Shown piece after piece: positions 16,314-55,690 of a DNA stretch of 64,000 nt. The translations under genes and the position numbers were made by a program. The notes below the pieces were generated by a model, which saw only the letters and a list, made by a program, of their open reading frames with translations, was not told the DNA's origin and searched no databases. The stretch's first letter is position 1. Every line of letters starts with the position of its first letter. The DNA comes from Clarkia xantiana subsp. parviflora (taxonomy: Eukaryota; Streptophyta; Magnoliopsida; Myrtales; Onagraceae), in NCBI GenBank assembly GCA_036873135.1, contig JAPTYO010000008.1, positions 34,250,761-34,314,760 of the forward strand, written 5' to 3'.

Positions 16314-16542
16314 TTCGGCACATATATATATATAATTATTGTCAAATATATCTTTAGGGATTAAAATATATATAGACAATATATTTTCTTAATCTTTTAT
16401 AGCAATTAAATCTATCAATATATATTAACCCTATCTTTATCTATATATATTGATAGTTAATATATATTTTTCAATATTATATTGTGAACCTATCCATATT
16501 TTCCAATTGTAGATATATAGTTACCTTTTAAAATATGGCTAC
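14896..16542 (-). other. Leader region of element C, first part
   Basis: Noncoding. It contains CCCGATCTTGGCTTTCCCA (about 15149-15167), a zone of GGTTCGGTCC/CCGGTTTG words (15840-16090) and TA microsatellites (about 16206-16237 and 16272-16309). It ends at the GCTAC target duplication of D and resumes at 27096. Confidence 0.7.
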
Positions 16543-16698
16543 TGATGGATATACGCCCAATTTGAACCCGTTGACTTCCAAACCGTTGTATTTTTATCGT
16601 CCCATTTATGATTGCGAATCGAAACTTCAACCCGGACACTTCGCGATAACATCGACGGCTCGGACGGGGCCGAAGCGCCCGTCCGACAGAGGCGAACT

Positions 16699-16873
16699 CA
16701 CCTAGGTGAGGTTGGGTGGCCACACCCGACCTCCCCTAGGGGAAATCGGGTCGGCCAACCCGATCCCTCCTAGGAGGGATGGGGTTGGCCAACCCCACCC
16801 TCCCTAGGAGGGGTTGGGTGTCCTCACCCAACCCCTACCCTTGGGGGTCGGATTTCTCCCCCCCCCCCAAGGG
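16699..16873 (+). repeat. Array of perfect palindromes in U3 of D's 5' LTR
   Basis: Back-to-back inverted repeats with alternating CCTAGG and GGCC centres: CACCTAGGTG, GGTTGGGTG/CACCCGACC, TCCCCTAGGGGA, ATCGGGT/ACCCGAT, ATCCCTCCTAGGAGGGAT, GGGGTTGGCCAACCCC, GGGTTGGGTG/CACCCAACCC, and CCTTGGGGG/CCCCCAAGG. The arms differ from unit to unit but nearly all pair completely. The array lies upstream of the TATA box, where enhancer or silencer sites would be expected. Confidence 0.9.
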
Positions 16874-17018
16874 TCCCGGCACCCCTTTCAGACGCCCATG
16901 CTCGGTCCACTCCGCCTGCCTCATCCGAATCCTAAAGTCTTAATTATACGCTTAAAGGTTAATTAATTGTATTTAGGGGCTAACGATGTCATTAAGCCAC
17001 CTTAATGACACCGTTGCC

Positions 17019-17026
17019 TATAAATA
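17019..17026 (+). promoter_or_regulatory. TATA box of D's 5' LTR
   Basis: TATAAATA in the context CCTATAAATACCCC. It lies about 330 bp before the LTR end, so transcription would start some 30 bp downstream. The same box is at 26764-26771 in the 3' LTR. Confidence 0.7.
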
Positions 17027-17351
17027 CCCCATCTTCACAACTCATTTGGAGATCTTGGCTATTTGAACAATTTAGCTCTGACATCTCTCTAGCTTTATCT
17101 CTCTAGAAATATAGTTCTGACTTAGGCATCGGAGAGGGTTCACCAGGCACCACCCCCCCTCCTCCGTGTCTGGTACTGCCCCTTTTGCAGGGCAAAGGGA
17201 GAGAAGAAGAGAAGGAACCAAGGGAAGAAGGAAAGGAAGAAGGACATAGGCAAAGGCAAGGTGACTCGAGAAGACCGGATCATACACATCCCCCGTAAGG
17301 AGTGAGATCAAAGCCGACACCCCGTTGACCTAGATCCCATAACTTAACACT

Positions 17352-17368
17352 TGGCGCCGTCTGTAGGC
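17352..17368 (+). other. Primer-binding site of element D
   Basis: TGGCGCCGTCTGTAGGC, two bases after the LTR. TGGCGCC-starting sites are typical of plant Ty3/gypsy elements and would pair with the 3' end of a cellular tRNA. I do not assign the tRNA. Confidence 0.85.
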
Positions 17369-17400
17369 TTCGGACAGAAAGCCTGGCTATCACACGAGCT

Positions 17401-20400
17401 ATGACAAACAGTAGGGTGTCCAGGCCCCAACACCCACCCGGGGGCAATGGGCGGAGAAGAGAACCCATACCCCCAGGGAGGCGGCCTGACCCTGGGAAGC
17501 AGCCAATGCACCCAGAGCCCCAAGAAATACCACAACCTCCTCAGCAACAGAACAACCAGGAGGGAGGACCTTCACGCCCAGCTGGGGCTGAGTCCTCCAC
17601 AGCCTCCACCCCCCGGGCAAGAAGGCCACAGAGAGCAAGAGGACAACAGGGAGTGCCTTCCCACAACACGGCACCCCCTGAGGGATACTACTATGAAGAG
17701 CAACCCCAAGGGTACCCGTATGGGATGCCAACACAGAGAGGTGGCAACCGCGCCCACACAGCATATGCAAGGCAGGCATACACCCAAGGGACTTACACTG
17801 AAGCTCAGAGGAGGAGCAGATCCCAGCAGAAGAGTACTACTCGCACCCTCGAGCAGGGCAGCGAGAGGAACAAAGAAGTTATCACCAGGAGCCACCCCCA
17901 GAGGGCAGGCAACAATTTGTGCCTCCTAGGCAACAGCAGAACAACAGGGCTTACACCCCGCTTGGGGAGGAAAGACAAACAAGACCTCCAAGGAGGCAGG
18001 ACTTCTATGAAGCACCCCAGCAGGCGTATCAAGAGCACACCTACAGTCCATACCAGCAGGGACAAAGGAACCCAGTAAGCCCAGTCTACAACTACAATGG
18101 ATATCAGAGGGATTATACTCCGGCACAGGTAGTGATCACCCCGGAGGAAATAGAAGCAATGATAACCCGGAAATTGAATGAGTCAAAGAAACCCAGCCTG
18201 CATTGTCTAAGTGACAAGACGAACCACCCTTTCACAAGGGAACTGGAGATGAACAGGGTGCCAGACTCCCTGCACACTGTGCAAATTGCAAAGTACAATG
18301 GGAAGGGAGACCCCCTAGAGCATATCCAACAGCATGAGGCCTCTCTATTCGGGAGGACAACTGACGAAAGATACAAGGCACTCCTTTTCCCAAACACCCT
18401 ATCAGGGGTGGCCTCACATTGGTTCTTCAGCCTGCCCTCTGAGAGCATTCACTCATGGGAGCAGCTAAAAGCTAAGTTTCTGCAGAGATACCTAGGGGAG
18501 AGGAAACTCCTCAAGGGAACAGGCTCCATTGATGACGTAAAACAAGAATACGATGAAACCCTGGCCAGCTACTACACTAGGTTCAACCAGAATATTGCAG
18601 ACATCCAGGGAGACATCACTGAAGGGGAGATAATCCGAGCCTTTATCAGAAACTTAGGTCGCTTTGGGTCAACATTGGCTGAAAAGATGGCCAAAAAGCC
18701 AGCAAGCACCTTGGAGGAGCTTGCAGGGAGAGTTAAAACGCATATTGACCTTGAGAGACACAGGGCAAGCAAGAAGGCCAAAATTCAGGCAGCCAAGGAG
18801 GATAATCAAAGGCCAAACAAAGGCAAGCCACCCCAGGCACCACAGCATGCAAGGCAGCAGGAGTGGCGTCCGCCACAGCAGGAGTGGCGTCCACCACAGC
18901 AAAGAAACCAAATGGGTGAACCCTTAAAGGCCAGAGAAATAAACGTCATTAAGTTCATCCCACTGAACGCCACTCCAGCCACCGTACTTAGAGAGATGCG
19001 GAACCAAAAGCTATGGTCACCCCCTGCAAGGTGGAGAGCCCCAATGGTAGGAAATCACAAGGATAGATGGTGTGACAACCACGAGGCTTATGGTCACGAC
19101 ACAAATGAATGCTTTAGCTTAAAGCTAAGCATAAACAACATCGTCCAGAGGGGAGAACTGAAGCAATTCGTAGACCATGAGGGCAATAGTACGCAACTGG
19201 GGCCACCACAGAAAGACAAGGGCAAGGGAAAGGTAGACCATAACCCTCCACCCAACAAAAGAGGAGTCATCAACATGATACATGGAGGAGCAGCATCAGG
19301 AGGCCCAACTGCTAATGCAAGAGAGGTCTATGCATCCAAGCTAAGCTCAGTGCCAAGGTGGAGAAAAAGACCAAGAGAAGGAGAAGAAGTGAAGATAGAG
19401 TTCTCGGAGAAGGACAAGAGCCACATCGTCTTTCCACATGACGATGCTCTAGTTATTACTTTAGATATTGATAATTTTGATGTAAAGAGAATTTTGGTGG
19501 ATGGGGGCAGCTCAGCTGACCTCCTAAGCCCGAGAGTGTTGGAAGAGATAGGGAAAACCAAAGCAGACATCAATCCGGTCAACTTCCCCCTAGTTGGCTT
19601 CTCAGGGGCAACAAGCTACCCCCTGGGGATGATAACATTGCCAGTGACCATGGGCCAAGGATGGACCCAGCTGAAGGTAAATGTCAATTTCTTGGTGGTT
19701 GAAAGCCTGGGAGCCTACAATGGGATCCTAGGAAGGACAACCATAAATCCATATGAAATAGTGCCATCCACTGTTCACCAGAAGCTGAAGTACATCACGG
19801 AGAACGGAGTTGGAGAGGTCTTGGGTGATCAACGCACTGCAAGACAATGCTATGTCAATTCAATGAGACATGGATCACACAGGACAGATACAGTGGCTAT
19901 GGTCATGGCAGGAGCCAACCAGGAAAGAAGAAAGAGGGGAGGGAGACAAAGGCAAAGAAGGAGGAGGAGTGGGGTGACACTCCGTTTGAGCAGGCAGCTT
20001 TTTCAAACAGTGCCTACAAGGAAACACAGGAGCAAGGCTGTGAAGGTGACATCCATACCTTGGCAGCCGGACACCATAATAGGGAGCAGGACAAGGGACT
20101 CCATCCTAAGAGGCTTCCGCCACATAGATGATATCAAGCAAATGCCGCAGGAGCCCATATCAAGCTATTTCCAGAGATTCTTCAATTATGGTGCCAACAT
20201 GGACATCACAAGGGGAGAAGCAGTCAGAGCATTCATCAGACACATGCATCCAAGCTCATTCGAGGCCTATGGAGGGCTCTATGAGATGGTCATGACGAGC
20301 ACAATGAGAGAGCTCAAGGCGAAACTGGACAGGGCATTTGAACAAGAGGCGGAACAGTTGGATGAAGTTCCAGAGAAAGGAAGAGAAGCAGACACATTGG

Positions 20401-20669
20401 GAGGAGGTGTCAATTTCACATTCACACCCCTCACGCTCAGCATAGAAGAAATTTTCCACAAACGCCTCAAGCAAGAGCTGCCAGCATGCAGGGAGGAAGG
20501 CAAGGCCTTCCTAGGTAGAGATGCACAGGGTTGGTGTGAGTACCATGGGACCTGGGGGCATCAAACCAACAACTGCATGGTGTTGAAGGTGGAAGTGGAA
20601 GAAATGATCTACAATGGAAGCTTCAAAGAGTACGTGGCAACAGACACAGTGACCACCCCATATCCTTAG
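17401..20669 (+). pseudogene. Gag-protease-second gag polyprotein of element D (frameshifted)
   Basis: ATG at 17401 opens a Pro/Gln-rich N-terminus. Near 17805 the reading switches frame by one base (the downstream frame has TGA at 17799) and then stays open to 20669. The downstream part shows a gag core (VQIAKYNGKGDPLEHIQ, WEQLKAKFLQRYLGER), a Cys/His knuckle-like segment (WCDNHEAYGHDTNEC), and a retropepsin active site (ILVDGGSSADLL, about 19490). It then reaches GEVLGDQRTARQCY, which in Tat elements precedes RT. Instead of RT there is a second gag-like segment (SSYFQRFFNYGANMDITRGE) with its own WCEYHGTWGHQTNNC. Frame choice between 19870 and 20100 is uncertain. Function: particle formation and processing, if expressed by frameshifting or from an intact sister copy. 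Confidence 0.85.
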
Positions 20670-20933
20670 TTTCATATCTAGCATTTCGCATGTTTTAGCT
20701 TTACAAGCTTTTCAAAAAACAACTCTTGAGAAGGAGAACTCACGAAGTTACTCCAACTCTACAACTATCTTTGATTTCCTACAAAGGATGTCTTGGTGCA
20801 CCAAGGCATCCCGAGTGTACCAAAACATGAATGCTCCTAAGAGAGTAGTAGTTATTCAAAAGTATTTACCAGTGAATGTGATGTTACAATCACCAAGTTA
20901 TCCTTACACAGATATGACTTCAAGTCAACAACC
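20670..20933 (+). other. Short unique stretch after gag of D
   Basis: 264 bp between the gag stop and the tandem arrays. It includes TCTTGAGAAGGAGAACTCACGA, which resembles a degraded array unit. I see no gene. Confidence 0.5.
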
Positions 20934-21453
20934 TTCGACGCCCCCAAGAGCGTATCTTGAGAGTAGTCTTCGTACTACGACATTCGACGCCCCCAAGAGC
21001 GTATCTTGAGAGTAGTGTTCATACTACGACCTTCGACGCCCCCAAGAGCGTATCTTGAGAGTAGTTATTATACTACGACCTTCGACGCACCAAGAGCGTA
21101 TCTTGAGAGTGGTTTCCAAAAACTACGAACTTCGACGCCCCCAAGAGCGTATCTTGAGAGTAGTGTTCATACTACAACCTTCGACGCCCCCAAGAGCGTA
21201 TCTTGAGAGTAGTTAATACACTACGACTTCGACGCACCAAGAGCGTATCTTGAGAGTGGTTTCCAAAAACTACGAATTCGACGCCCCCAGGAGCGTATCT
21301 TGAGGTAGATTTGCAACCTACCAGATTCGACGCCCCCAAGAGCGTATCTTGAGGTAGAAAAAACACTACCAGTTCGACGCCCCCAAGAGCGTATCTTGAG
21401 GTAGATTTCAAACTACCAGTTCGACGCCCACCAGGAGCGTATCTTTGGTCTAA
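20934..21453 (+). repeat. Tandem array of about 48-bp units, each with two hairpins (element D)
   Basis: About eleven units beginning TTCGACGCCC; a twelfth, detached copy is near 21724. Hairpin one is CAAGA-GCGTA-TCTTG, or CAGGA-GCGTA-TCTTG in one unit. Hairpin two is GTAGT..ACTAC in early units, GTGGTTT..AAACTAC in two units and GGTAG..CTACC in the last three full units. The stems change but keep pairing, with G-T pairs on the plus strand. Plus-strand frames through the array are open by chance of the repeat and are not genes. Confidence 0.95.
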
Positions 21454-21765
21454 CCTGAGCCCTCCGGGAGCCTATCCTGCGAAACGTTAAGTGCCGTCCG
21501 AGAGCCTGTCTCGTGAACAGTTTGACACCCGTCAAGAAGGTATCGGTGGACTAACCTGTGCCCTCCGGGAGCCTATCCTGCGAAACGTTAAGTGCCGTCC
21601 GAGAGCCTGTCTCGTGAACAGTTTGACACCCGTCAAGAAGGTATCGGTGGACTAACCTGTGCCCTCCGGGAGCCTATCCTGTGAAACGTTAAGTGCCGTC
21701 CGAGAGCCTGTCTCGTGAAAAGATTTCGACGCCCACCAAGAGCGTATCTTTGGTCTAACAGTACA
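21454..21765 (+). repeat. Tandem array of about 101-bp units with covarying hairpins (element D)
   Basis: Nearly three copies of a unit starting GCCCTCCGGGAGCC. Each holds CGGGA-GCCTA-TCCTG and CGAGA-GCCTG-TCTCG, which are the same 15-base hairpin shape as CAAGA-GCGTA-TCTTG in the preceding array, with different but paired stems. A weaker third fold (CACC..GGTG) surrounds AAGAAGGTATC. Confidence 0.9.
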
Positions 21766-22321
21766 ACGTATACCGTGTAAGGGGTATCAGAAGAGATCAT
21801 CACACCATGTTTAAAAGGATACCATGCTTAGAAGGATACCATGCTCGGAAGGGTAACATGAGAAAGAAATTTCTAAGTAAAGTAATGTGAAGAACAAGTA
21901 ATGTTTTTTCTTTATGAAATGGCAGGTAAGACATGAAGGAAAACACGAAAGAAGGATAAGTAAAGGAAACACACCAAGTAAAGAGTCCATACCCAAAGAG
22001 CCATACACAAGGCATAGGGAGCCATCATGAGAAGAGATATATACAAAAGCATGAGAAGCACTAATGTAAAGGCAAACAAACCACGTAGTCAACAACATAA
22101 TGCGGCAAAGGAAAGTAACAACAAACACCATCACAATCTCAAAGGACACTCAACCCATGCAATGGGAGAAGAAGTGTAATTATATACAAGGATAGTATGA
22201 GATAAACAAGTCAGTCAGAACCCTCGGGGGACTCACCCTCACCCCCTGAAGCTGAACCGCCAACGGAAATAGATGAGGAAGAGGAATCTGAGGTACCAAT
22301 CTCCACAGGTGTAGCATCCAC
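21766..22321 (+). other. Spacer between hairpin arrays and antisense gene (element D)
   Basis: Purine-rich DNA with three short repeats of CCATGCTTAGAAGGATA-like words (21800-21850). It would be the 3' untranslated part of the antisense gene. No frame on either strand looks real. Confidence 0.5.
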
Positions 22322-24451
22322 CTAGGCAGGGGCAGGCTCGTCTGCAACGGCAGCCTGACCCATCAGAACAGTCGCGTAGCCAGTGGCATATGGCCCAAAG
22401 TCACCAAGGTCACCAAAGGGGAACTGAGGATCAATCCGGTATATGTGATCAACCAGATACTCACCGAACTGGTTCATCTCCTGGGTGAGACGCGTGCTAT
22501 AGTCGGCGGTGAAGGCAGAGGAGGCCTTGTATTCAGATACCGCGACAGCCCTCTCCTCCGCCCGACACTTAGTCTCCAACCTCCGCAGCTCCTCAGAATG
22601 GACAGACGCGGCAACCTCAGCTTCCCGGCGCAAACTGCCCACAGTGGTTTCAAGCAAGGACACCTGGTCCTGGAGCTCCTGCAGTCTCAAATCAGATATA
22701 CGCGCCTTCTCGGCAGCAGTGGCGACCTCCGCCTTGAGAGAAACCTGGCTGTCCTCAAGGGTCTTCCTCTCGTCAGATAACTCGAGTACGAGCGAGGACA
22801 TGTTCACCATGTCAGATATGCCCTAACAATTCAAACAAGGGATGAATAACCGAAAGATAGACATTATGAAAGAAATAAGAGGAAAGCAGAGAACAACTTA
22901 CAGGTGCATAACGAGAGAGTACCCCTTGAACAAAGCGCCGAGTCTCCCCAGGAGACTTGGGCGGAGCAACACGATCCCCAGGGGGAACGGCACCGCGAAG
23001 GACGCGGACACCAACCTCAGGAGTCCGCAAAGAGGAAGTGCTATCGAGGTGGAACTCCTTCAGACCAGCGAAGGGAGTCCACTCAGACCCAATAACATCT
23101 TCATCAGTGAGCCGTGCGAAATCCTTCCGACTTAAAGTCGGAGGCCCACCTACACAAGCAAAGCAAGTCAAAGGAGAGTATAAACATACAAGGATCAGCA
23201 CAAGGTAGAGATCATACCTGAGGACCGTGCCCTCGGCTGGGGGGCAGGGGAACCACCACCAGCAGGTCGCTTCCCTTTGTCAGCCAGGGAAGGCACCTCT
23301 TCGACCACCATCTCCTTATCACGAGATAGGGTCGGAGGACGAGCAGTAGGCGAAGCAGGATCCACAGCCTTCTTCCTCTTAGCAGCCGAGGCCCCGGCCT
23401 CAGAATCAGATCGCCGCGGCTTGGACTTGGAAGGTCCAGAATCTCTGCCAACGGAGACGACCCTCTCAGTCACCAAGGGGGAGCGCACTAGCAAGGTAAG
23501 AAAAACAAGATAAGGAAAACATAAGTTACATCATAAAGAAGCAAATAGGAGAAAGCATACCAGAGGCCCCAGCCTTCTTCCCAGGCAGAGGGGATTTCTT
23601 CAAAGCAGAACTAGAAGGAGCCTTCCTCTTGCTCAGATCAACAGGGGCTCCCTGCATGTTATAGGTTTTTCCATGAAACCAACCTACAAAGGAAGAGCAG
23701 AAGGTAAATAAAGATGGAAAGACCAAGTGACATACCGAACCCCCGGAGTCAGGAGTCAGACTGATCCCGGCCTCGTAAAGATCCGTCTCAGTTATTAAAG
23801 ACACGGGGCAGTAAGACCGGGTCCTGTTGCTCTCGTGAATGATCTTCATAGTCTTCAAATCATCCGAAGAGAACTCTCCAAAAGCAGGCCAACCATCGGA
23901 CCGATCCTCATTCAGGACCGACCAAGTGACGTATCGGTCCGTAATGAAGAAGTAGTGCTTAGCCCAGTGACTGGCCGAATTGTCAATCTGGGTCACAAAA
24001 CGGAGAGAGGTATCCCACTCGACCCCACTCAACCCGAAATCAGAGAATCGGGGATCTTTGAAGGTCGGATGGCGAGTTACGAAACTCGCAAACCCCACCC
24101 TCGTCCGGTACTGGAACCGATAGAAACATCGGAATAGAACGAGAGAGTACTTCCAGGAGTACCAATGGCACAATACCCGGAAGCCCACCCAGACGCGGAG
24201 GGCACTGGGGGCAAGGTTCACAGGAGAAATCCTGAAAAACCTGCTCAACTCTATAAGCTCGTCACAGTAAGGCAGTCTCAGCCCGAATCGGATCTGAGAG
24301 GGGTACACGGCGACCTTCCCTATAGGAGGCTCCGTCGCCGTCCCGCGAGTATTCCCCAAGGAGGGGAGAAAAGGATACAGAGGCTCATCTAGGGGACTGA
24401 TATCTCCTAGGGTGACATGTTCGTTGTAATCGGACCTAGTGATATGGTTCT
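22322..24451 (-). CDS. Spliced antisense-strand gene of element D (putative gypsy-type transposon protein with coiled coil)
   Basis: Runs opposite to gag. Four coding exons join in phase: 24451-23561, 23487-23218, 23149-22902 and 22822-22322, with introns of 73, 68 and 79 nt, all GT-AG. The first exon encodes a domain with YPSQIRFGLRLPYCDELIEL and APSALRVWVGFRVL, which I recognise as the plant 'putative gypsy type transposon' family (Transposase_28-like). A basic low-complexity segment follows (RKKA, KPRR), then SSLRTPEVGVRVLR, then a coiled coil (LELSDERKTLEDSQ on) ending at DPQFPFGDLG. A further 57-nt intron-like piece (23684-23740) is in frame either way. Extra antisense genes are known in Tat-lineage elements; the biochemical role is unknown. 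The true start lies upstream, perhaps at 24759. Confidence 0.8.
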
Positions 24452-25139
24452 CTGACAGAATAGCAAGACCTAAGGCAAAGATAGCAAGAAACCCCAAAGC
24501 ACGAATCAAATTTCGACTAACACCCCAATGAAGGTCACGATACTAAGCTAGCAATAGGAAAGGAAGTAACGCAACCGAAAAGGAAGAGAAAAAGGAACTC
24601 ACTCATCCTTCGGAGAATACGGCGTCTCTGAAGAGTCTGCGTACGTGGACACCACCAGGAGTATAGTACCTGCCACGACACGACGAATATCAAGATAAGA
24701 GAAATTTCCGAGGAACCGGAAATACCCCGACACTCAACCAACCACAACAACCGAGTCAAATAGTTTTATCCAAGCCTAAGGTCGGGTTTTGGAAAAAATT
24801 ACCATTATACCCTCCAACAAAGATTAACACACCAACGGCGGTACGACATCAAATTCAAGACCGGGATAGCCCAATCGGACAAGAAACCATATCCGGACAA
24901 TCGACAAACATTTTTCCCAAAATCCACAACTACCAACGGCTATCTACGGCAATCCCACATTCAATCAAATTTCGGCAATCAAGCATCGGCGATCAAGCAT
25001 CGGCGATCAAGCATCGGCAATCAAATATCAACGATTCAAAAATCAACGTTTTACGCGGTAATGGAAAGGAAAAGAACGGACCTTCGGAAAACCCGACCCG
25101 ATGTGGTAAACGGGTCCGGAATTCGAATTTCGAAGCCGA
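24452..25139 (-). other. Upstream part of the antisense gene: possible first exon and short repeats
   Basis: A frame from ATG 24759 reaches a good donor (GA|GTGAGT, near 24600). It would join in phase to the acceptor CTGTCAG|AGAACC at 24452, but its protein looks unremarkable, so this exon is tentative. At about 24970-25030 a 15-base word ATCAAGCATCGGCG is repeated about four times with small changes. Confidence 0.4.
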
Positions 25140-25650
25140 TTGAAATCAGCCCCTCGCCGGAGTTCTAATCCCGCCGTCGCCGGAGTCGTTCCCGACCGTC
25201 TCCCCGTCGCCGGAGATGGCTCCAGAACACGCCGGAGCTCCCTGTCCCGCCGTCGACTACTCTGGCCGAAGCTAGCGCTGCCGTCGCCGGAGGTAACCTC
25301 GCCGTCGAAGCCTCCCGACGCCGCTGCTCGTCTGGTCGCCGCCCTCCGTCGACCAAGCCCGTACCGCGTCGCCTTCGTCCGTCAGCCGCCGGAAGTCACG
25401 TCGCCGTCGACCGCCAATGCCGGACCAGGTTCCACCTCCGTCAGCAGCAGCCTCGACGTCGCCCTGGTCTGCCGGTCCGTCCCGCCTCCACGTCGCCGTC
25501 CGCCTGGGGCTGTGCCGTCGTCCTCAGCCACACCTCCTATCGCCGGAATTGCTGGCCGGAATTTCGTGTCGCTCACCGGAATTCTGGCCGGCCCTAACCT
25601 TGGGGGTGCTCTCAAAACTTTTCTTGCTCTCCAAGGGTTAGTGAAGTGAG
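25140..25650 (-). other. GC-rich CGCCGG-repeat region upstream of the antisense gene
   Basis: About 500 bp dominated by CGCCGGA and GTCGCCG words, a sharp change from the AT-rich surroundings. The long frames on both strands (for example 169 codons on plus) follow from the lack of AT-rich stops and have no domain. Position suggests a 5' leader or promoter-proximal CpG-rich segment of the antisense gene. A smaller GC-rich patch stands in the same place in G (52280-52430). Confidence 0.5.
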
Positions 25651-26253
25651 AAGATGGTGGCTATGGTGATTCTTTGAGGTATTTTTCTAACTCCTTTCTA
25701 TGTTAAAAGGATGATAGGGTTTCTTAGGGGTTTTAATCATCACCATCCATCTAGCCTTAAATAAAATCTAAGGGCCAAGGAAAAACCATTATTTTTATCC
25801 TTTTCACCTATAGCTAAGTATATTCCCATACTTAGAAAAATTATCAGGTTAGTTTTATTTTTTGAGCATTCCATACTTAGGAAAATTTTTGGCCAGAATT
25901 AAAATTTTCCCTCACTTAGATAAAATCCCGGCACGAAATTGAAGCGTAAGTTATTTAGTTGCATTCGTATCACATCCCTGTGCAAGTTTGTATTTTTTGA
26001 GTATACACCTGTAGCAGAGATAAGTTTATTACTCCCGCCTCAGACGGACGTATGCCTAGGCACACGTCCGTGCTACTCTGACGTTTACAATTCCTCTATC
26101 TCATTAGACAGGGGGCAGAGTCAGAGGCACGCATCCATAGGTAAGCAGGCATTCAGACAAAGAAGGTAAAATCCCGGTTTCAAATTGCGCGTGTCATACC
26201 ATCCTAAAATAGAGTCAATCAAGGGTTAGGCCATTGGTTGACTCGGGGGCATG
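25651..26253 (+). other. 3' noncoding region and polypurine tract of element D
   Basis: Contains three related words (CCATACTTAGAAAAATT, CCATACTTAGGAAAATT, CCTCACTTAGATAAAAT). It ends in GACTCGGGGGCATG (26240-26253) directly before the 3' LTR; this purine-rich run is the likely plus-strand primer. I see no gene. Confidence 0.7.
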
Positions 26254-27095
26254 TGATGGATATACGCCCAATTTGAACCCGTTGACTTCCAAACCGTTGT
26301 ATTTTTATCGTCCCATTTATGATTGCGAATCGAAACTTCAACCCGGACACTTCGCGAGAACATCGACGGCTCGGACGGGGCCGAAGCGCCCGTCCGACAG
26401 AGGCGAACTCACCTAGGTGAGGTTGGGTGGCCACACCCGACCTCCCCTAGGGGAAATCGGGTCAGCTGACCCGATCTCCCCTAGGGGAGATCGGGTCGGC
26501 CAACCCGATCCCTCCTAGGAGGGATGGGGTTGGCCAACCCCACCCTCCCTAGGAGGGGTTGGGTGTCCTCACCCAACCCCTACCCTTGGGGGTCGGATTT
26601 CTCCCCCCCCCCCAAGGGTCCCGGCACCCCTTTCAGACGCCCATGCTCGGTCCACTCCGCCTGCCTCATCCGAATCCTAAAGTCTTAATTATACGCTTAA
26701 AGGTTAATTAATTGTATTTAGGGGCTAACGATGTCATTAAGCCACCTTAATGACACCGTTGCCTATAAATACCCCATCTTCACAACTCATTTGGAGATCT
26801 TGGCTATTTGAACAATTTAGCTCTGACATCTCTCTAGCTTTATCTCTCTAGAAATATAGTTCTGACTTAGGCATCGGAGAGGGTTCACCAGGCACCACCC
26901 CCCCCTCCTCCGTGTCTGGTACTGCCCCTTTTGCAGGGCAAAGGGAGAGAAGAAGAGAAGGAACCAAGGGAAGAAGGAAAGGAAGAAGGACATAGGCAAA
27001 GGCAAGGTGACTCGAGAAGACCGGATCATACACATCCCCCGTAAGGAGTGAGATCAAAGCCGACACCCCGTTGACCTAGATCCCATAACTTAACA
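26254..27095 (+). repeat. 3' LTR of element D
   Basis: 842 bp. It matches the 5' LTR except for G at 26358, one extra C in the CACCACCCC run, and a 34-bp addition in the palindrome array (26410-26618). The added unit brings two more perfect palindromes, GGGTCAGCTGACCC and GATCTCCCCTAGGGGAGATC. Confidence 0.95.
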
Positions 27096-27493
27096 GCTAC
27101 TATATACATAGGGTGGCCGGCCGAATTTTGCTTACTTGGACCCTAAGAAATTAAAAAAATTACCTAATAATTCACTAGGGTTATCGGCCAAAACACAAAA
27201 ATTTGGAAAATTTGTCAAATTTTAAGATCAAAGACTACTATGATCATTAATCCAAATATTATTCTTGATAGAACTTATCGTGTTCATGAAGATCATGAAC
27301 ATCAAACTTAAATTTAAATCAAAAATATCGGCACCAATCCTTAAAAACATGTATAATCCGAAAATTTTAAGTTTTAAAGATCAAAGTCATGAAATTAAGT
27401 TTAAAAATTTCGGTGTTCATAATGTATAAAATTCGGTTTTTATAAAATTTCAAGAACATCAGTTTGTCAAAAAATTTAAGAACTCCTAAACCT
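27096..27493 (-). other. Leader of element C, second part
   Basis: Starts with the second copy of GCTAC and continues the AT-rich leader up to the primer-binding site. Similar sequence lies before the primer sites of A (31470-31750) and E (48190-48450), with AAATTTTACTAAGATCA and GAAGATCATGAACATCA in common. Noncoding. Confidence 0.75.
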
Positions 27494-49056: not shown

Positions 49057-49560
49057 ATTAGAGCTTCTAATTTCAAACACCATGTGCATCATTTCAAAAA
49101 ATAAATTACATGGATTGTTTTATTCTTAGCAGTTCATCCAATATGCATGAATATAAAAAAAAAAATTAGGTAAATCGTAAGTTCTCTTAGTTTTTGAACT
49201 TTTAGGTTCAAACTTGCATCGTATATGCATTACTTTCAAAAAAATATTTTTACCTGAAGTTTTAATTAAAGAAATGCATCTCATACGCATTATTTTCAGA
49301 AAAATATTTCAGGTAAATTATAATTTTTCTTAATTGTAGAACCTTTATTTTTAAGTTTGCATCTTATATTTATTTTTGTGCATCCCATATGCATTAATTC
49401 CAAAAATAATTTTTCTCTTGTTACTTGCAAGCCATTTTTAATTCCAAACATGCATCACACATTTATTCTTTTCAAAAAGAGTTACCTATGTATCATTCAG
49501 GTAAACTGTTGTAAATTGTAAAAAAAAAATCAACAGGAGAATTTTAACTTTCAAGCATCC
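49057..49560. repeat. AT-rich degenerate tandem repeat, right of E
   Basis: Four to five loosely similar units of roughly 100 bp with GCATC..TATGCATTA, an A-run and TTTCAGGTAAA. The left continuation is at 32269-32354. Origin unknown; it predates E. Confidence 0.6.
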
Positions 49561-49996
49561 ATGACATTTCTATAAAAACTTAAAGTGTCATTCAATTTGG
49601 TAATATCATTTCAACACTCGCATGAGCCAGGGTTTTAAAAAAAGAGTTCATTCTGATTTTTGAAGAAACGACTTATTTGTTTAGTTGAGCGTGGCTATGC
49701 AAGTTGAAACAAATGAAAAGAATTTTTTAAAAAAACTTTGTTTTTAGCATTTGTCATGTGTTCAAGTCTGTTAGTAAGCACTCAATGAACTCAATTAACT
49801 CTATGAAGGTGTAAAACCCTTAGATCATAAATTTTGATTCTTTGTGAAAAGTAATCAAAATTATGAAGCAAATGACATTTAAGTTTACGCAAAAAATGCA
49901 TGAATGACATCTCTCGTCATTTATACTAATTTTCTTATTTGGTATTTTCAGGTACATTTGATTTCCTGTCTCGCATATACAAGTTGCGTCTGCTAG
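49561..49996. other. AT-rich stretch before a small spliced frame
   Basis: No gene seen. A strong acceptor-like site TTTGGTATTTTCAG ends near 49950 and may begin a noncoding exon for the next feature. Confidence 0.4.
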
Positions 49997-50336
49997 ATGG
50001 AGAAGAGATATCAGAACATGCACCTCAAGTCACATACGGAACAAAGTGCCCACTCGAGAAATCCAATACCGAGGTATGATAAGTTGTGATTAACTTTATT
50101 CTCGAAATTTAAACGTTACTCACTCTTATTGCAGCTCGGACAATCATATCAATCAAGGCCCTTGCCGCGCATATCCCGCGCACGGTTATTTTCTCGCCGA
50201 CCATTCTGATGTCAACGTCGAGTTTGTCCCGGATACTTCAGACAATTTTCATACCTTTGAAGCTTCACTTTCCATTTGTGGCATGCCTATCCAAATTCTA
50301 CATCCATGTGTGTTCATCTACCAGTTTATTCATTAA
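49997..50336 (+). CDS. Small two-exon frame of unknown function
   Basis: ATG 49997, exon to 50073, a 61-nt GT-AG intron (donor CCGAG|GTATGA, acceptor TTATTGCAG), exon 50135-50336 ending TAA; 92 residues. The join is in phase and gives residues such as MEKRYQNMHLKSH, NQGPCRAYPAHGYFLADH and VEFVPDTSDNFHTF. I do not recognise the family. It runs on the same strand as the antisense gene of G and stands just before a hairpin array. The splice signals are good, but the frame could be chance. Confidence 0.35.
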
Positions 50337-50570
50337 GCATGACAAGAGCATTTGAGAAGCAGGGAAAACATTATTGTCATTGGGTTCCATCAAAGGGTAC
50401 TCAACCCAAGACGTCGACACGATCAACATATTTTGAATCAATTGGCCAAGTCCTTTTCCAGAAGAAGTTCTGAGAATTCAAAATTTTCAATCTACCACAA
50501 GGGGCATGTCAATAATTTTTGTTGTTGATTACTTTCTACAAATGTTCTTTTCAATAAAAAAAATATTCCC

Positions 50571-51455
50571 GCTAGGTTGAAAACTTGTAAAGGCGACCTA
50601 GGCAAAAGTTAGGAAACGAGGGAGATTATTGAAAATCCACAAGGGCAATCATGACAAAAGGTAAGGACGGGAAATTATTTGAAAGGGCCACAACCACCCT
50701 CAAAAATGGCTACATATACATCCGTAAATCTTGTGAGGCCGAGAAATTATTTGAAAGGGTCACAACCACCCTTAAAATGGCTACATACAAAGAGTGTTCC
50801 CTGAATCCTGTGAGGAGGAGAGATTGTTGAAAGGGCCACAACCACCCTCAAAATGGCTACATATAAAGAGTATTCCCGTGAATCTTATGATACTGGGAAA
50901 TTATTTGAAAGGGCTACAGCCACCCTTAAATGGCTATAAATATAGAGTGTTCCTGTGATTCGTGTGAGGCCGGGAAAAAATTTGAAAGAGCCACAGCCAC
51001 CATTAAATGGCTACACATAAAGAGTGACCCCGCGAACCCTGTGAGGGAGGGAAAATAAACGAAAAGGTCTCAGCCACCCTCCAAATGGCTACAAATTAGA
51101 GGTGCTCCCGCAACTTCGAATGCGTGAAATAAATGAACGGGTCACAGTCAACCCGAAATTGACTATTCAAAAGAAGAGCTTACGCAATGGAAAATGCGGA
51201 AAATATTTGAGAGGGTCACAGCCACCCTTTAATTGGCTACCAAATAAAGATGGCTTCCGCTAGGTTGAAAACCCGAGAGGGCGGCCTAAACAAAATTAGT
51301 AAATGAGGGGCATGATCGCAAATTCAAAAATCGCAATCATTGCAAAATGAGAGAAAATAAAATCCCGATGGAATGAAAACCTCAAGGGGCATTCCATGCA
51401 AAAATTAGGGAAACCGAGGGGCACGGTCGAAAGTCTCTCAAAGTCGACCGTGGCA
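50571..51455 (+). repeat. Hairpin array with exchanged stems (element G region)
   Basis: Three dimers of stem-loops with loops of about 14 bases (AAAAC..AGGG-like in most) frame an inner array. Odd hairpins: CTAGGTTG/CGACCTAG (50572-50601), TAGGTTG/CGGCCTA (51261-51288), ATGGAATG/CATTCCAT (51368-51397). Even hairpins: ATTATTG/CAATCAT, ATGATCG/CAATCAT, CACGGTCG/CGACCGTG (51422-51452). Inner units of about 75-80 bp carry AGCCA..TGGCT, in one unit AGTCA..TGACT, plus TTCCCG..CGGGAA. Each odd hairpin is followed by a GCAAAAGTTAGGAAACGAGG-like linker. Confidence 0.9.
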
Positions 51456-53200
51456 AAAGGAGAGAATATGAGAGATAAAAAAAAAAAAAAAAAAGGATCC
51501 CGCTAAGTTGTCGCGTCATGTGCAGTTTAGGCAAATTAGGACATGCATTGCCACTAAAAGCTCTTCACCAATTTGAGCTTGACGCTAACCTTCCGGTTTT
51601 GCTCGTCGGTTGGACGTAGACGTCTCGATTTCGTCCGTCCCTTGATTTTTTGACCGAGTGACTTTTTTCCTGTCATCACGGTTAGTGCAATAGAGAATGG
51701 GCGTATATAACGTATAAACATGATTACCGCTAGGGATATAAGCGATTGGTAATATGTCATGCAGATATGCTTTTTATCAACATTGATGCACAAGTAACGG
51801 TCATGGCAAGAACGTAATTACGTGATGCTAGAAATATAACCTGTATACCCTAAAATGACTTAGCGATTAATAAATCATGAATCATGCGGTATGCAAACAT
51901 GCATGTAAAATGATGAATTTGATATGCGTAATACCAAGATAATCATACGCGTAGAGATTGGTAAATACTTAGAAGAGGGTGGAGTATACCGTAAGCACTT
52001 AGGCATGGGTGTAGATGAATCACTCATTTGGTCCTTATAATCAAGGAATCTTTTGGGATATGTGATTACACTAATCCCCAATCATTCTTCCAGCTTTTTT
52101 GGAATTCATTCTTCATCCTTCTTTGCAGGTAATTGCTCCACCATTTCTAGAAACCATTTGCTTGTTCATAGTTTCTTCACCGTCGTAAACTTTACGTGCA
52201 TCCTGAAAGTTACGTGTTTGATTCATGACTTGTTTTCAGAAATTGACACCACCAATCGACTCAGATCATCGCGAGGATTCCGGCGCCGCCTTCAGAATCG
52301 CCAACCGACGCCGGACGCGCCCTCACGCGCCGTCGTGTGTGTGTTGTCCTCCCGACGCGTGTAACCCACGCGCCGCCTTCCCGTGCTCTGTTCGCCGCGG
52401 TCTTTACCTTTCTGAAATCGTCTCGACGAGTGGAGTCCATTGTGATACTTTTTGTCACATTTTGAGGTAGTCTGAAAACTCGATTTTACAGAACAGCTTC
52501 GTCTTGATTTTTGGATGTTGCCGTGTTGTTGTTCCTTTGAACTATTTGTCGTTGTTGTTGCATAGAGCTGCTCATTGGTGTTCGTATGTTGAATAATTTT
52601 CGGTTGGTTGTTGTTGCTATCATCGTTAGCTCATGCCTTAGACGATTTTTTACCTCCGTGCATCGTTGTGGTAAAATTCCGCTATTTTGTATATTGCCAC
52701 CATCCCTTCGCGTAACGGTCTTTTGATCGGCACGTGTTGTTTTTCCCTTAACGGGTTTGTTGGTTGCCAGAAGTTGCTAAACTTCTTTGGGAGTAGTCGC
52801 TGGTTGTTTTGATGTCTTAGAAAAATATTTTTCCTAAGTGTTGTCGTGTTCGCTTCTTCGCGGTTTGTCACGTTAGTCGTGCCGCTTGCATGATGGTTTC
52901 TTGGGACGTTGGCCACTTTTGTTCTACGCATTAACTTTGCTATGCACGTTGACTTTGCAACACGTATGTTGTTATGTGTATTGGCGCTTTATGATCGCAT
53001 GACTTTGACGTGTAGACTCCTTGTTTGGTTCTTGCAGATTGTGACGTTGCAGTAACCTTTTGTGGAACTCCTTTCTTTTTTATCGAATAACCACTATGAG
53101 TAAGTCCTTCATTCCTACTTTGCAAATTTTGAGCATCTTGGTACTCATGATGGATAGCCTATTGATCGGTTTTATGTCTTTCATGGAACTTGTACTGCAG
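51456..53200 (+). other. Region upstream of the antisense gene of G
   Basis: Holds an 18-base A-run (51477-51494), a decayed hairpin (CTAAG..TTTAG), AT-rich DNA and a short GC-rich patch (52280-52430) like that upstream of D's antisense gene. I find no trace of D's RFGLRLP domain here. Frames in the GC-rich patch are not convincing. Confidence 0.45.
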
Positions 53201-54530
53201 GTTGGTTTGCCGGAAAGAGCTCGTCTCTCCACGCAGCGGCTTCACGCGCTGATCAGGCTTTAGCGGCCCCTGCCCCCATCACTGCTGCCAATTCGGGGCA
53301 TGGTCCTGGCAAAAGGGTCTTCTGAACATGTGACCGGGGATACTCCCCAAGTGTCTGATTCTCGCGTTTCTTCCAAGCGGACTGACACAGTGGCGCATGG
53401 CCCGACTTCCCAAGCGCTTGAAGCCAAATGCGGCTACTTCAACTCATTGTAACAAAGGCAAGGAAGTTGCGAGTCGCAATGTAGCGCCATCTGCCCCCCA
53501 GTCGGGAGATCGACTTGTGGAAGTCCGCGGACTCTGTTAGTATGCTTTTGATGAGTATATGTCGTGGTTTTGCTATTTGTTGTTAACCGCTTTCCTTCTT
53601 TGTTGTAGCGGTTCCTCCTCTTAGGCGCGACCATCTGGTCTGCCCAGTTGGATTGGATATTACTGGGGACACTTGGGCACCTTTTGGTAATGGTGGTGTC
53701 TATTTTCCCAAGGAGTCTTCTCTTCGTACTCCAGAGGTTGGAGTTCGCGTATTGCGCAGATGTGTTCCCCCGGGTGATAGGCATTCTTGTCCATCAATGA
53801 GGAGGCCGAGGCTTATGCGCAGAGCGCCTTGTCTCGGTTTGCTCCTGTAAGTATTTTGTTTCTTTTTGCCAAGTTTGCTGTTTTTGCGATTTATGTTTTG
53901 CTAATTGCATTGATGTGTGAAGGTTGTTGCCGACATGGTGAACATGTCGTCCTTTGTTATGGAGCTGGTAAGCGCCAAGCTGCTATGGACAAGTGTGATG
54001 GTCTTTGTCAAGAGTTGTCACGAACCAAGGAGAAGGCGCGATTGATGAGTTCGAAAGTCACCGCTTCTGAGGGCCGTTATAAGGCGCGCCATATTCGCTT
54101 ATCCAAGCTTGAATCTGAGATGATTGCTCTTGAGAAGAAGGTCACAGACGATCTTCATGCGCAGGGAGCGGAATTACTTGCTCTCGTTTAGGAGAGTCGG
54201 GAGAAAGGTGTACAAATGGGCTTTACCAAGTACATGGGTACTTCTGAATTCGAAGTTGCTGTTGAGGAGAAGGTGAACAAGTTGATGAGTGAGCGTTCCG
54301 AAGATTACTTCACTAGGGTTAAGGATCTTGACCCTGAGTTCCCCTTCGGCGAGCTAGGGCCTTATGCGAGTTATGCCCTTTCTCATATTGCGGCGTTAAG
54401 CCTTTTGGAGCGTGGACTTCCCAACTATGAGATGTCGGTTGATGACAGTGGAGGCGTAAATGTCGTTGTTACCTCTCCTGAATATATGGAGGTTGCCCCC
54501 GAGCCTTCTGCAGGTGGTGCCACTATTTGA
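53201..54530 (+). pseudogene. Antisense-strand gene of element G, C-terminal part (decayed)
   Basis: Homologous to D's antisense gene, opposite to G's pol. The acceptor TACTGCAG|GTTGGTTT (53200) equals D's TTTGTAG|GTTGGTTT; the exon gives GWFAGKSSSLH against GWFHGKTYNMQ. The exon 53609-53846 holds SSLRTPEVGVRVLR and ends at GCTCCT|GTAAGT, as in D. A 76-nt intron (D: 79 nt) is followed at 53923 by ADMVNMSSFVMEL, then a coiled coil and DLDPEFPFGELG. Frameshifts near 53790 and 53970 and a TAG at 54187 inactivate it. The N-terminal domain is missing. Confidence 0.75.
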
Positions 54531-55250
54531 GCTGCACTTTGATGTTTATTTTGAGCATGTTTGGCTCTTTTCCACTTTGCTTCTGGCTTTTGTGTTTGGA
54601 ACTTTGTTGGAGTTGTTCCTTGGTTGTTGCTTGTGACTTGTTCGCTTTGAACTATGTCGTTTTAACCTGCTTTATGCATAGCAGTTTGCATGATAACTTG
54701 TTAGTAATATTTCATACCGTTATCACTTACTGTTTTTGTTGAATGTGGATGACTAGTAACGTAGACATAGTCCCCGCAGCCGTGACCGATAGCCACTTCT
54801 TGATTAATGACTTGAGATGTACTCAAGATTGCTTGCATTACGTATGTTGCCCTTCTTTCCTGAATAGCTTGCCGTTAAATATGTTGTAACCTGTCAAGTA
54901 TTTCGCGTATAGCGACTTTTCTTAACAAATAGTATATTTGAAAGGTGTTATCTTGTCTAAGCAAGATACTAGTTTATACCGTCTCTTAGTTCCACTCTAA
55001 GGCGACGTTGTACAAGACTCGACTTGTAAATTTTATGAGTTTTATAAACAGGGTGCGCACCTGCCAGCGTGTATCAACCCGCGTTGGGGAAGCATTCGTA
55101 AAAACATTTTGGTTTTTGAAAAAATATTTGTGATACATGATTCCTGCATCCAGGGATCACGTAACACTTTTTGAAAATATGTATTGTGATGCATGCTTTC
55201 TGCGTCCAGGAACCATGGAACACGGTTTGAAAATCTGTAGTACGGAATTG
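54531..55250 (+). other. 3' region of G's antisense gene with single hairpins
   Basis: No gene. Several stem-loops occur: ATCTTG..CAAGAT near 54950, CTTAG..CTAAG near 54987-55001, and GTGAT..ATCAC enclosing TCCTG..CAGGGA near 55131-55156, with a second, altered copy about 60 bp later. Confidence 0.55.
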
Positions 55251-55690
55251 TCATCTAACAAGAGGACTTTTGCCGTAATGTGTGAACCCTTAAGCAGGAA
55301 TTCATAGTACGGGATTGTCATCTAACAAGAGGACGTTCGCCGTGTAGAGTGAACCCTTAAACAGGAATTCATAGTATGGGATTGTCGCCTAACAAGAGGA
55401 TATTCGCCATAAAGAGTGAACCCTTAAGCAGGAATTCATAGTACGGGATTGTCATCTAAGAAGAGGACGTTCGCCGTGTAGAGTGAACCCTTAAACAGGA
55501 ATTCATAGTATGGGATTTTCACCTAACAAGAGGACATTCGCCATAAAGAGTGAACCCTTAGCAGGAATTCATAGTACGGGATTGTCATCTAACAAGAGGA
55601 CGTTCGCCGTATAGAGTGAATCCTTAAACAGGATATACACACTTGTTGTAGCGTGGGGTCGTTGTCTAACAAGAGAACTTCCGCCATTTA
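55251..55690 (+). repeat. Tandem array of about 63-bp units with covarying stem (element G)
   Basis: About seven units beginning GTA(C/T)GGGATTGTCA and containing CTAACAAGAGGA and AGTGAACCCTTAA. Where the left arm is TACGG the right is CCGTA or CCGTGTA; where it is TATGG (units near 55371 and 55503) the right is CCATA. It lies between the ends of the antisense gene and pol, as in D. Confidence 0.95.

What the first reader, a model, noticed from the sequence alone, without database searches (positions are those of the whole stretch)
50571..51455. Array of stem-loops whose stems are wholly exchanged while loop size and linkers are kept
Six hairpins form three dimers. Within the odd set the stem goes from CTAGGTTG/CGACCTAG to TAGGTTG/CGGCCTA to ATGGAATG/CATTCCAT. 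Within the even set it goes from ATTATTG/CAATCAT to ATGATCG/CAATCAT to CACGGTCG/CGACCGTG. Loops of 13-15 bases (AAAACCTCAAGGGG-like) and linkers (GCAAAAGTTAGG..CGAGG-like) stay recognisable. Inner units change AGCCA/TGGCT to AGTCA/TGACT, and TTCCCG/CGGGAA to TTCCTG/CGGGAA. Conserved loops with freely changing but paired stems are the mark of selection on shape. Most wobble pairs favour the plus-strand RNA, but the AACCA/TGGCT units favour minus.
Basis: seen in the sequence. Interest (0 to 1): 0.85.

Follow-up and report, generated by a model that had tools for sequence, protein, structure and literature searches.

The report
Hairpin array with co-changing arms
A stretch of non-coding plant DNA, probably left by a retrotransposon, holds a row of small hairpins whose two arms have changed together so that they still pair, which suggests that the fold is kept either by selection or by an unusual copying error.

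Summary
Aligned in register, 43 of 48 arm cells still pair although arms differ at 49% of sites; 6 of 8 pairs changed on both sides, one taking all four Watson-Crick types. Of 28,545 neutral-decay simulations kept, none reached both the observed pairing and covariation.

Corrections: a decayed seventh hairpin lies at 51503-51530. Loops are not better kept than stems (0.45 against 0.49); the closing G-C pair, first loop A's and CAAAA tail are. The eight inner units show no covariation beyond shuffles. Strand is unresolved. No Tat pol was detected upstream on this strand; the one in the window is on the other strand.

No relative was found, but the DNA collections searched hold no plant genomes. 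Tandem arrays 3' of pol in Tat/Retand elements are known; pairing-preserving stem turnover was not mentioned in the passages read. Selection on RNA shape is slightly favoured over template-switch correction.

The parts
50572..50601 (+). outer hairpin O1 (8-bp stem, 1 G-U; 14-base loop)
50624..50653 (+). outer hairpin E1 (6 of 8 arm positions pair)
50661..51250 (+). eight inner units of about 77 bp; local inverted repeats, no covariation beyond shuffles
51146..51164 (+). AGTCAA/TTGACT in inner unit 7, the one both-sided change of the AGCCA/TGGCT helix
51260..51289 (+). outer hairpin O2 (7 of 8 pairs, 2 G-U)
51311..51341 (+). outer hairpin E2 (6 of 8 pairs on plus; folds far better on minus)
51368..51397 (+). 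outer hairpin O3 (8 Watson-Crick pairs, new stem); held-out test case
51422..51452 (+). outer hairpin E3 (9 Watson-Crick pairs, new stem)
51503..51530 (+). probable decayed seventh hairpin O4 (8 pairs with 2 G-U in odd register), outside the reported range; weakly scored by the model (7.7 bits, E 2.6)

Best explanation
The feature is a row of about seven related hairpins, in odd/even dimers, with a block of ~77-bp tandem units between dimers 1 and 2, most likely left from the non-coding 3' part of a plant LTR retrotransposon. Shown: the arms of the outer hairpins changed together so that pairing was kept; the register of about 8 bp, the closing G-C pair, the first A's of the loop and the CAAAA tail stayed. 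Inferred: pairing was kept by selection on the folded RNA because the hairpins act together as a multivalent binding platform in the element's genomic RNA. A protein would read the shape plus the A-rich loop edge and tail; the element's Gag (packaging) or an export receptor, in the way retroviral constitutive transport elements recruit TAP/NXF1, are the likeliest readers. Stem sequence is then free to drift, so neighbouring repeats become unlike without losing function.
For: Pairing and covariation above shuffles, slid partners and neutral decay. Held-out hairpin found only when pairs are modelled. Changes include transversions: one pair is A-U, U-A, C-G and G-C, another A-U and U-A, so cytosine deamination alone does not explain them. 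Pairwise: O1 to O3, 9 substitutions in 16 arm positions with all 8 pairs kept, P 0.001 to 0.027 by transition bias; E1 to E3 about 0.0005. Arm length stays near 8 while sequence turns over, and the tail is kept. A stem-loop bound by TAP/NXF1 exports unspliced RNA in simple retroviruses (PMC3856414, passages).
Against: Only seven hairpins in one locus and no outside copy; hairpins were noticed because they pair. Strand unresolved. Inner units do not covary. Loops, the usual recognition part, vary as much as stems. O1 to O2 is uninformative (P 0.44 to 0.88). Similar arm coupling occurs in loopless DNA palindromes of a neighbouring LTR, which RNA binding need not explain. Parent element and transcription not shown.
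Confidence: 0.38

Rival explanations
1. No function: template switching within imperfect inverted repeats, during reverse transcription or DNA replication, copies one arm onto the other, so stems become perfect again and change in multi-base jumps without selection.
For: The mechanism is described and gives multi-base compensatory changes (PMC8794818, abstract and passages). O3 and E3 are perfect and differ at many positions at once. Coupled arms also occur in LTR palindromes without a loop. Abnormal strand transfer is already proposed for the origin of Tat 3' arrays (PMC7004042, passages).
Against: Constant stem length and register, and G-U states in O1, O2 and O4, fit stepwise change under constraint; no inverted loop was noticed on inspection (not tested by script).
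Confidence: 0.32
2. Duplex-DNA recognition sites: the inverted repeats are palindromic sites for a dimeric protein, of the host or encoded by the element (for instance the TRP28-type antisense product), regulating transcription or silencing.
For: Sirevirus LTRs carry arrays of palindromic motifs upstream of the TATA box (PMC2829016, passages); VANC proteins bind fast-evolving tandem repeats (PMC5735166, passages); Retand antisense TRP28 products are predicted to bind DNA (PMC11963269, abstract).
Against: Whole stems are exchanged, so no arm sequence is left for a duplex-binding protein to read, and 13-15-base spacers are long for a dimer.
Confidence: 0.12
3. The modules are not homologous hairpins: unrelated short palindromes were placed between common spacer sequences by recombination, so stems never changed together.
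For: O3/E3 match the other dimers only in loop edge, flank and tail; the sequence-only model covers just positions 7-36 of O3.
Against: O1/E1 and O2/E2 align over 92 bases at 75%; the 12-position stretch after the 3' arm differs at 1 of 12 between O1 and O3; same register and size throughout.
Confidence: 0.11
4. Independent point mutation (with cytosine deamination) and picking of hairpins by eye.
For: E2 and E3 arms differ by transitions at 5 of 6 positions; the inner units behave like this.
Against: Of 28,545 kept neutral-decay runs with transition bias 1, 4 or 10, 3 reach the pairing, 1 the covariation, none both.
Confidence: 0.04
5. Small-RNA precursor or silencing hairpins.
For: Short hairpins in repeat DNA.
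Against: Stems of 8-9 bp are too short for plant miRNA-like precursors (established knowledge); no Rfam family.
Confidence: 0.03

Closest known systems
Tandem-repeat arrays between pol and 3' LTR of plant Tat/Retand/Ogre elements (PMC11963269 abstract and passages; PMC7004042 passages; Macas 2009 and Kejnovsky 2006 cited there, not read)
   Same: Non-coding tandem array of 49-150-bp-scale units in a window with two Retand-like elements
   Different: 'hairpin' and 'secondary structure' occur 0 times in both texts; coupled stem change not described there; this array is not shown to follow a pol
Palindromic repeated motifs of Sirevirus LTRs (PMC2829016, passages)
   Same: Arrays of dyad-symmetric motifs in plant LTR retrotransposons; close match to the U3 palindromes of element (a) here
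   Different: Ty1/copia; short palindromes with a shared CGG-CCG core in most; here the core is exchanged and a 13-15-base loop separates the arms
Retroviral constitutive transport element (PMC3856414, passages)
   Same: Works-like model: structured stem-loop in retroelement RNA read by an export receptor
   Different: Animal retroviruses; no sequence or binding evidence here
VANDAL/VANC target repeats (PMC5735166, passages)
   Same: Fast-evolving tandem repeats in non-coding parts of a plant transposon
   Different: Short sequence motifs bound by a TE-encoded protein; 'hairpin' and 'inverted' occur 0 times in that text

Membership tests
Tat/Retand POL-3'LTR tandem array | tandem repeats of family-specific sequence | tested here: met
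   77/154-bp repeats at 50670-51093
Tat/Retand POL-3'LTR tandem array | lies downstream of pol (or gag) on the same strand and before a 3' LTR | tested here: not met
   no Tat pol match on the plus strand upstream; no LTR pair found round the array; integrase C-terminus poorly covered, so a decayed end could be missed
Tat/Retand POL-3'LTR tandem array | antisense ORF, usually TRP28, in the same region | tested here: inconclusive
   an antisense-type ORF lies 2.3 kb away (53781-54530) but belongs to minus-strand element (b); no PF04195 in it
Structured RNA under selection | covariation above shuffles and above neutral decay | tested here: met
   outer hairpins; not met for inner units
Structured RNA under selection | structured model beats sequence profile on held-out members | tested here: met
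   one held-out hairpin, O3: 31.6 against 9.7 bits; a second, O4, is not recognised (7.7 bits, E 2.6)
Structured RNA under selection | conserved in other genomes | not testable with these tools
   no plant DNA collection; searches found nothing
Constitutive transport element | exports unspliced RNA through TAP/NXF1 | not testable with these tools
   needs a bench assay

The most novel reading that the evidence does not exclude
Plant gypsy retroelements carry arrays of shape-only RNA hairpins: fold, stem length, loop edge and tail are kept by selection while stem sequences are turned over completely, perhaps to keep neighbouring repeats unlike and so avoid recombination or silencing. The 'hypervariable' repeats 3' of pol would then be a functional, covarying RNA element rather than only a seed of satellite DNA.
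Probability: 0.22. Interest if true: 0.72.

Novelty: new variant of a known kind. Interest (0 to 1): 0.5.

Why it matters
Repeat arrays 3' of pol in plant gypsy elements have unknown function and seed satellite DNA (PMC11963269 and PMC7004042, passages). If such arrays are covarying hairpins, their function becomes testable with covariance models and chemical probing. If template switching is the cause, they are a natural record of coupled arm mutation, and a warning that covariation alone does not prove RNA function.

Tried and rejected
Relatives: stem-agnostic patterns found 0 in viral contigs and 0 in genome contigs. The array DNA has no match in plasmids or E. coli genomes; Rfam gives one match below its gathering score, 23.1 of 48 bits, E 0.76. 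A 65-aa reading of inner units had no candidate in the protein collection, which does hold plant proteins. RT-based look-ups: viral contigs none; genome contigs 1 locus out of 51 pattern stretches, a contig end without a 3' region. Six short words of the array gave 1 unrelated paper. By their descriptions the DNA collections searched hold no plant genomes, so this absence says little.

Rejected or unsupported: the whole array as one folded RNA; covarying inner units; an apical mini-stem in the loops (covariation reached by 38 of 500 shuffles, pairing by 62 of 500); significance of the GC[GC]T[AG]-loop hairpins of element (a) (91 of 500); a solo-LTR boundary round the array: 9 candidate boundary pairs with a 5-base repeat, none compelling; a host exon at 49954-50073 (no solved relative).

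Rows dropped: O4 was left out of A8 and A9 after MAFFT misaligned it in A7, so searches use 5 or 6 of 7 outer hairpins; include it. A6 was not counted because E2 was one base off. LTR palindromes were tested on the 3' LTR copy only.

Full report
WHAT IS THERE. The window is plant-type DNA with several LTR-retrotransposon pieces. The array on the plus strand has two layers. The outer layer is three odd/even hairpin dimers (O1/E1, O2/E2, O3/E3) and a probable decayed seventh hairpin O4. Between dimers 1 and 2 lie eight inner units of about 77 bp. Odd hairpins start after CCG, have an 8-base arm, a 14-base loop (12 in O4), an 8-base arm and a CAAA-TTAG tail. Even hairpins start after a GAGGG-like run and end in CAAAA.

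IS IT MORE THAN CHANCE. Hairpin counts in 50560-51560 exceed dinucleotide shuffles for long stems, not for 6-bp Watson-Crick stems. The stronger test aligns the hairpins in register and asks whether arms vary together. Odd set (4 hairpins): 96.9% of 32 cells paired, 5 of 8 pairs changed on both sides, 0 of 500 shuffles as high in pairing, both-sided change and covariation, 12 of 500 in further pair types. Six of the seven outer hairpins (O4 left out for alignment reasons): 43 of 48 cells paired, 6 of 8 pairs with a both-sided change, covariation 0.750; 0 of 500 shuffles for pairing and covariation, 17 of 500 for the number of both-sided pairs, 38 of 500 for pair types; sliding the partner by 1-3 columns gives at most 0.175. 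One pair takes A-U, U-A, C-G and G-C. All seven by arm swap: 51 of 56 paired, 10 of 5040 permutations as good, 4 of 5040 for Watson-Crick pairs only. Shuffles ignore descent, so I simulated neutral decay of a perfect hairpin on a tree ((O1,O2),O3),((E1,E2),E3) with transition bias 1, 4 and 10 and three sets of branch lengths. Of 54,000 runs, 28,545 had a mean arm distance no more than 0.05 below the data. Three reached the observed pairing, one the covariation, none both. The tree shape is assumed, not inferred.

A covariance model from five hairpins (O1, O2, E1, E2, E3) finds O3 in the whole window with 31.6 bits, E 2.6e-5. The same alignment without pairs gives 9.7 bits, E 0.14. O4 is not recognised: 7.7 bits, E 2.6 with pairs, and absent from the sequence-only list. 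E-values are rough. The hairpins were noticed because they pair, which favours them. Against that, the sequence-only model lists six hits in the window and all six are these hairpins, none an unpaired place; but five of the six trained it.

WHAT DOES NOT HOLD. Loops are not better kept than stems (0.45 against 0.49 mean pairwise difference); the tail is (0.09). Inner units do not covary beyond shuffles in the three helices tested. The whole array does not fold clearly better than shuffles on either strand. Strand is open: O1-O4 and E3 fold better on plus, E2 much better on minus, E1 is a tie.

CONTEXT. Element (a), 16543-27095 plus: LTRs 95.6% identical, 5-base repeat GCTAC on both sides, gag ORF, antisense ORF with Transposase_28 at 26.5 bits against a cut-off of 26.2. 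Its only matches to 120 Tat-like pol proteins are to their first ~220 residues, upstream of RT. It is Retand-like by these marks and lacks a detected RT. Element (b), minus: RT-RNaseH 59202-57790, 50-61% identical to the 120 best-listed plant-type proteins; integrase-like frames down to 56311; antisense ORF 53781-54530 related to that of (a) (tblastn 4e-10). The array lies beyond that antisense ORF. Its AT skew on plus is 0.30, like the sense strands of (a) gag and (b) pol, but its flanks have none. Neither parent nor sense strand is settled. That such hairpins follow pol in sense orientation in other plants is my recollection and comes from no call.

SAME LOGIC NEARBY. In (a), 3' of gag, 18 copies of a 15-base hairpin keep a GC[GC]T[AG] loop with arms CAAGA/TCTTG, CGGGA/TCCTG and CGAGA/TCTCG; on 6 distinct rows the coupling is not significant (91 of 500). 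In the U3 part of its 3' LTR, five palindromes with GGG/CCC arms are 37 of 40 paired (2 of 120 arm permutations as good); five with CCTAGG centres are 34 of 40 paired (8 of 120; 2 of 120 for Watson-Crick pairs). This widens the phenomenon and cuts both ways: U3 is in the 3' end of genomic RNA (established knowledge), but loopless DNA palindromes are also what template switching or dimeric DNA-binding proteins would leave.

MECHANISM. Shown: coupled arm change. Not shown: its cause. I favour selection on the folded RNA as a multivalent platform for Gag or an export receptor (0.38) because register and stem length stay while sequence turns over, and because transversions and G-U states occur. 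Template switching is nearly as good (0.32).

LITERATURE SEEN. PMC11963269: outline, abstract, passages. PMC8794818: outline with abstract, passages. PMC2829016, PMC7004042, PMC6317226, PMC5735166, PMC3856414: passages only. Other papers: listings only. Searches joining such retroelements with hairpin, stem-loop, palindromic or compensatory listed no title on stem-exchanging hairpins in these arrays; the lists were capped (15 of 263 and 10 of 284), and Macas 2009 and Kejnovsky 2006 were not seen.

Noticed in passing
window 16543-27095 (+): Retand-like element without detected RT: LTRs 95.6% identical, target repeat GCTAC at 16538-16542 and 27096-27100, gag ORF 17919-20669, antisense Transposase_28 ORF 24509-23526.
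   Followed up: partly
window 16697-16836 and 26408-26581: U3 array of palindromes (34-bp period) upstream of a TATA-like site near 17019; arms change together (3' LTR copy). The 3' LTR has one unit more than the 5' LTR.
   Followed up: partly
window 20934-21759 (+): 49- and 101-bp repeats made of short hairpins with loop GC[GC]T[AG] and three stem types, plus a second GTAG/CTAC hairpin per 49-bp unit with changing loops.
   Followed up: partly
window 55238-55633 (-): 67/134-bp array 3' of the minus-strand pol; seen by eye, alternate units carry ACGG/CCGT and ATGG/CCAT, possibly one event.
   Followed up: no
window 53781-54530 (+): ORF antisense to the minus-strand Tat-like pol, one stop inside, related to the second antisense ORF of element (a).
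   Followed up: partly
L001 (BMWJ01000029.1, 4661 bases): A contig filed under Streptomyces clavifer encodes a 42%-identical relative of the Tat-like RT; probably plant contamination.
   Followed up: no
plasmid records NZ_CP087956.1, NZ_CP065944.1, NZ_CP065945.1: Plasmid records of Wolbachia and Bacillus licheniformis with gypsy-like RT matches (21-33% identity); possibly eukaryotic contamination.
   Followed up: no
window 50500-50508 and 26245-26251: AGGGGCATG upstream of the array resembles the purine run just before the 3' LTR of element (a); it might mark a polypurine tract, which would put the array inside an LTR.
   Followed up: no
window 49082-49369: Two diverged copies (71%) of an AT-rich unit of about 145 bases side by side.
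   Followed up: no
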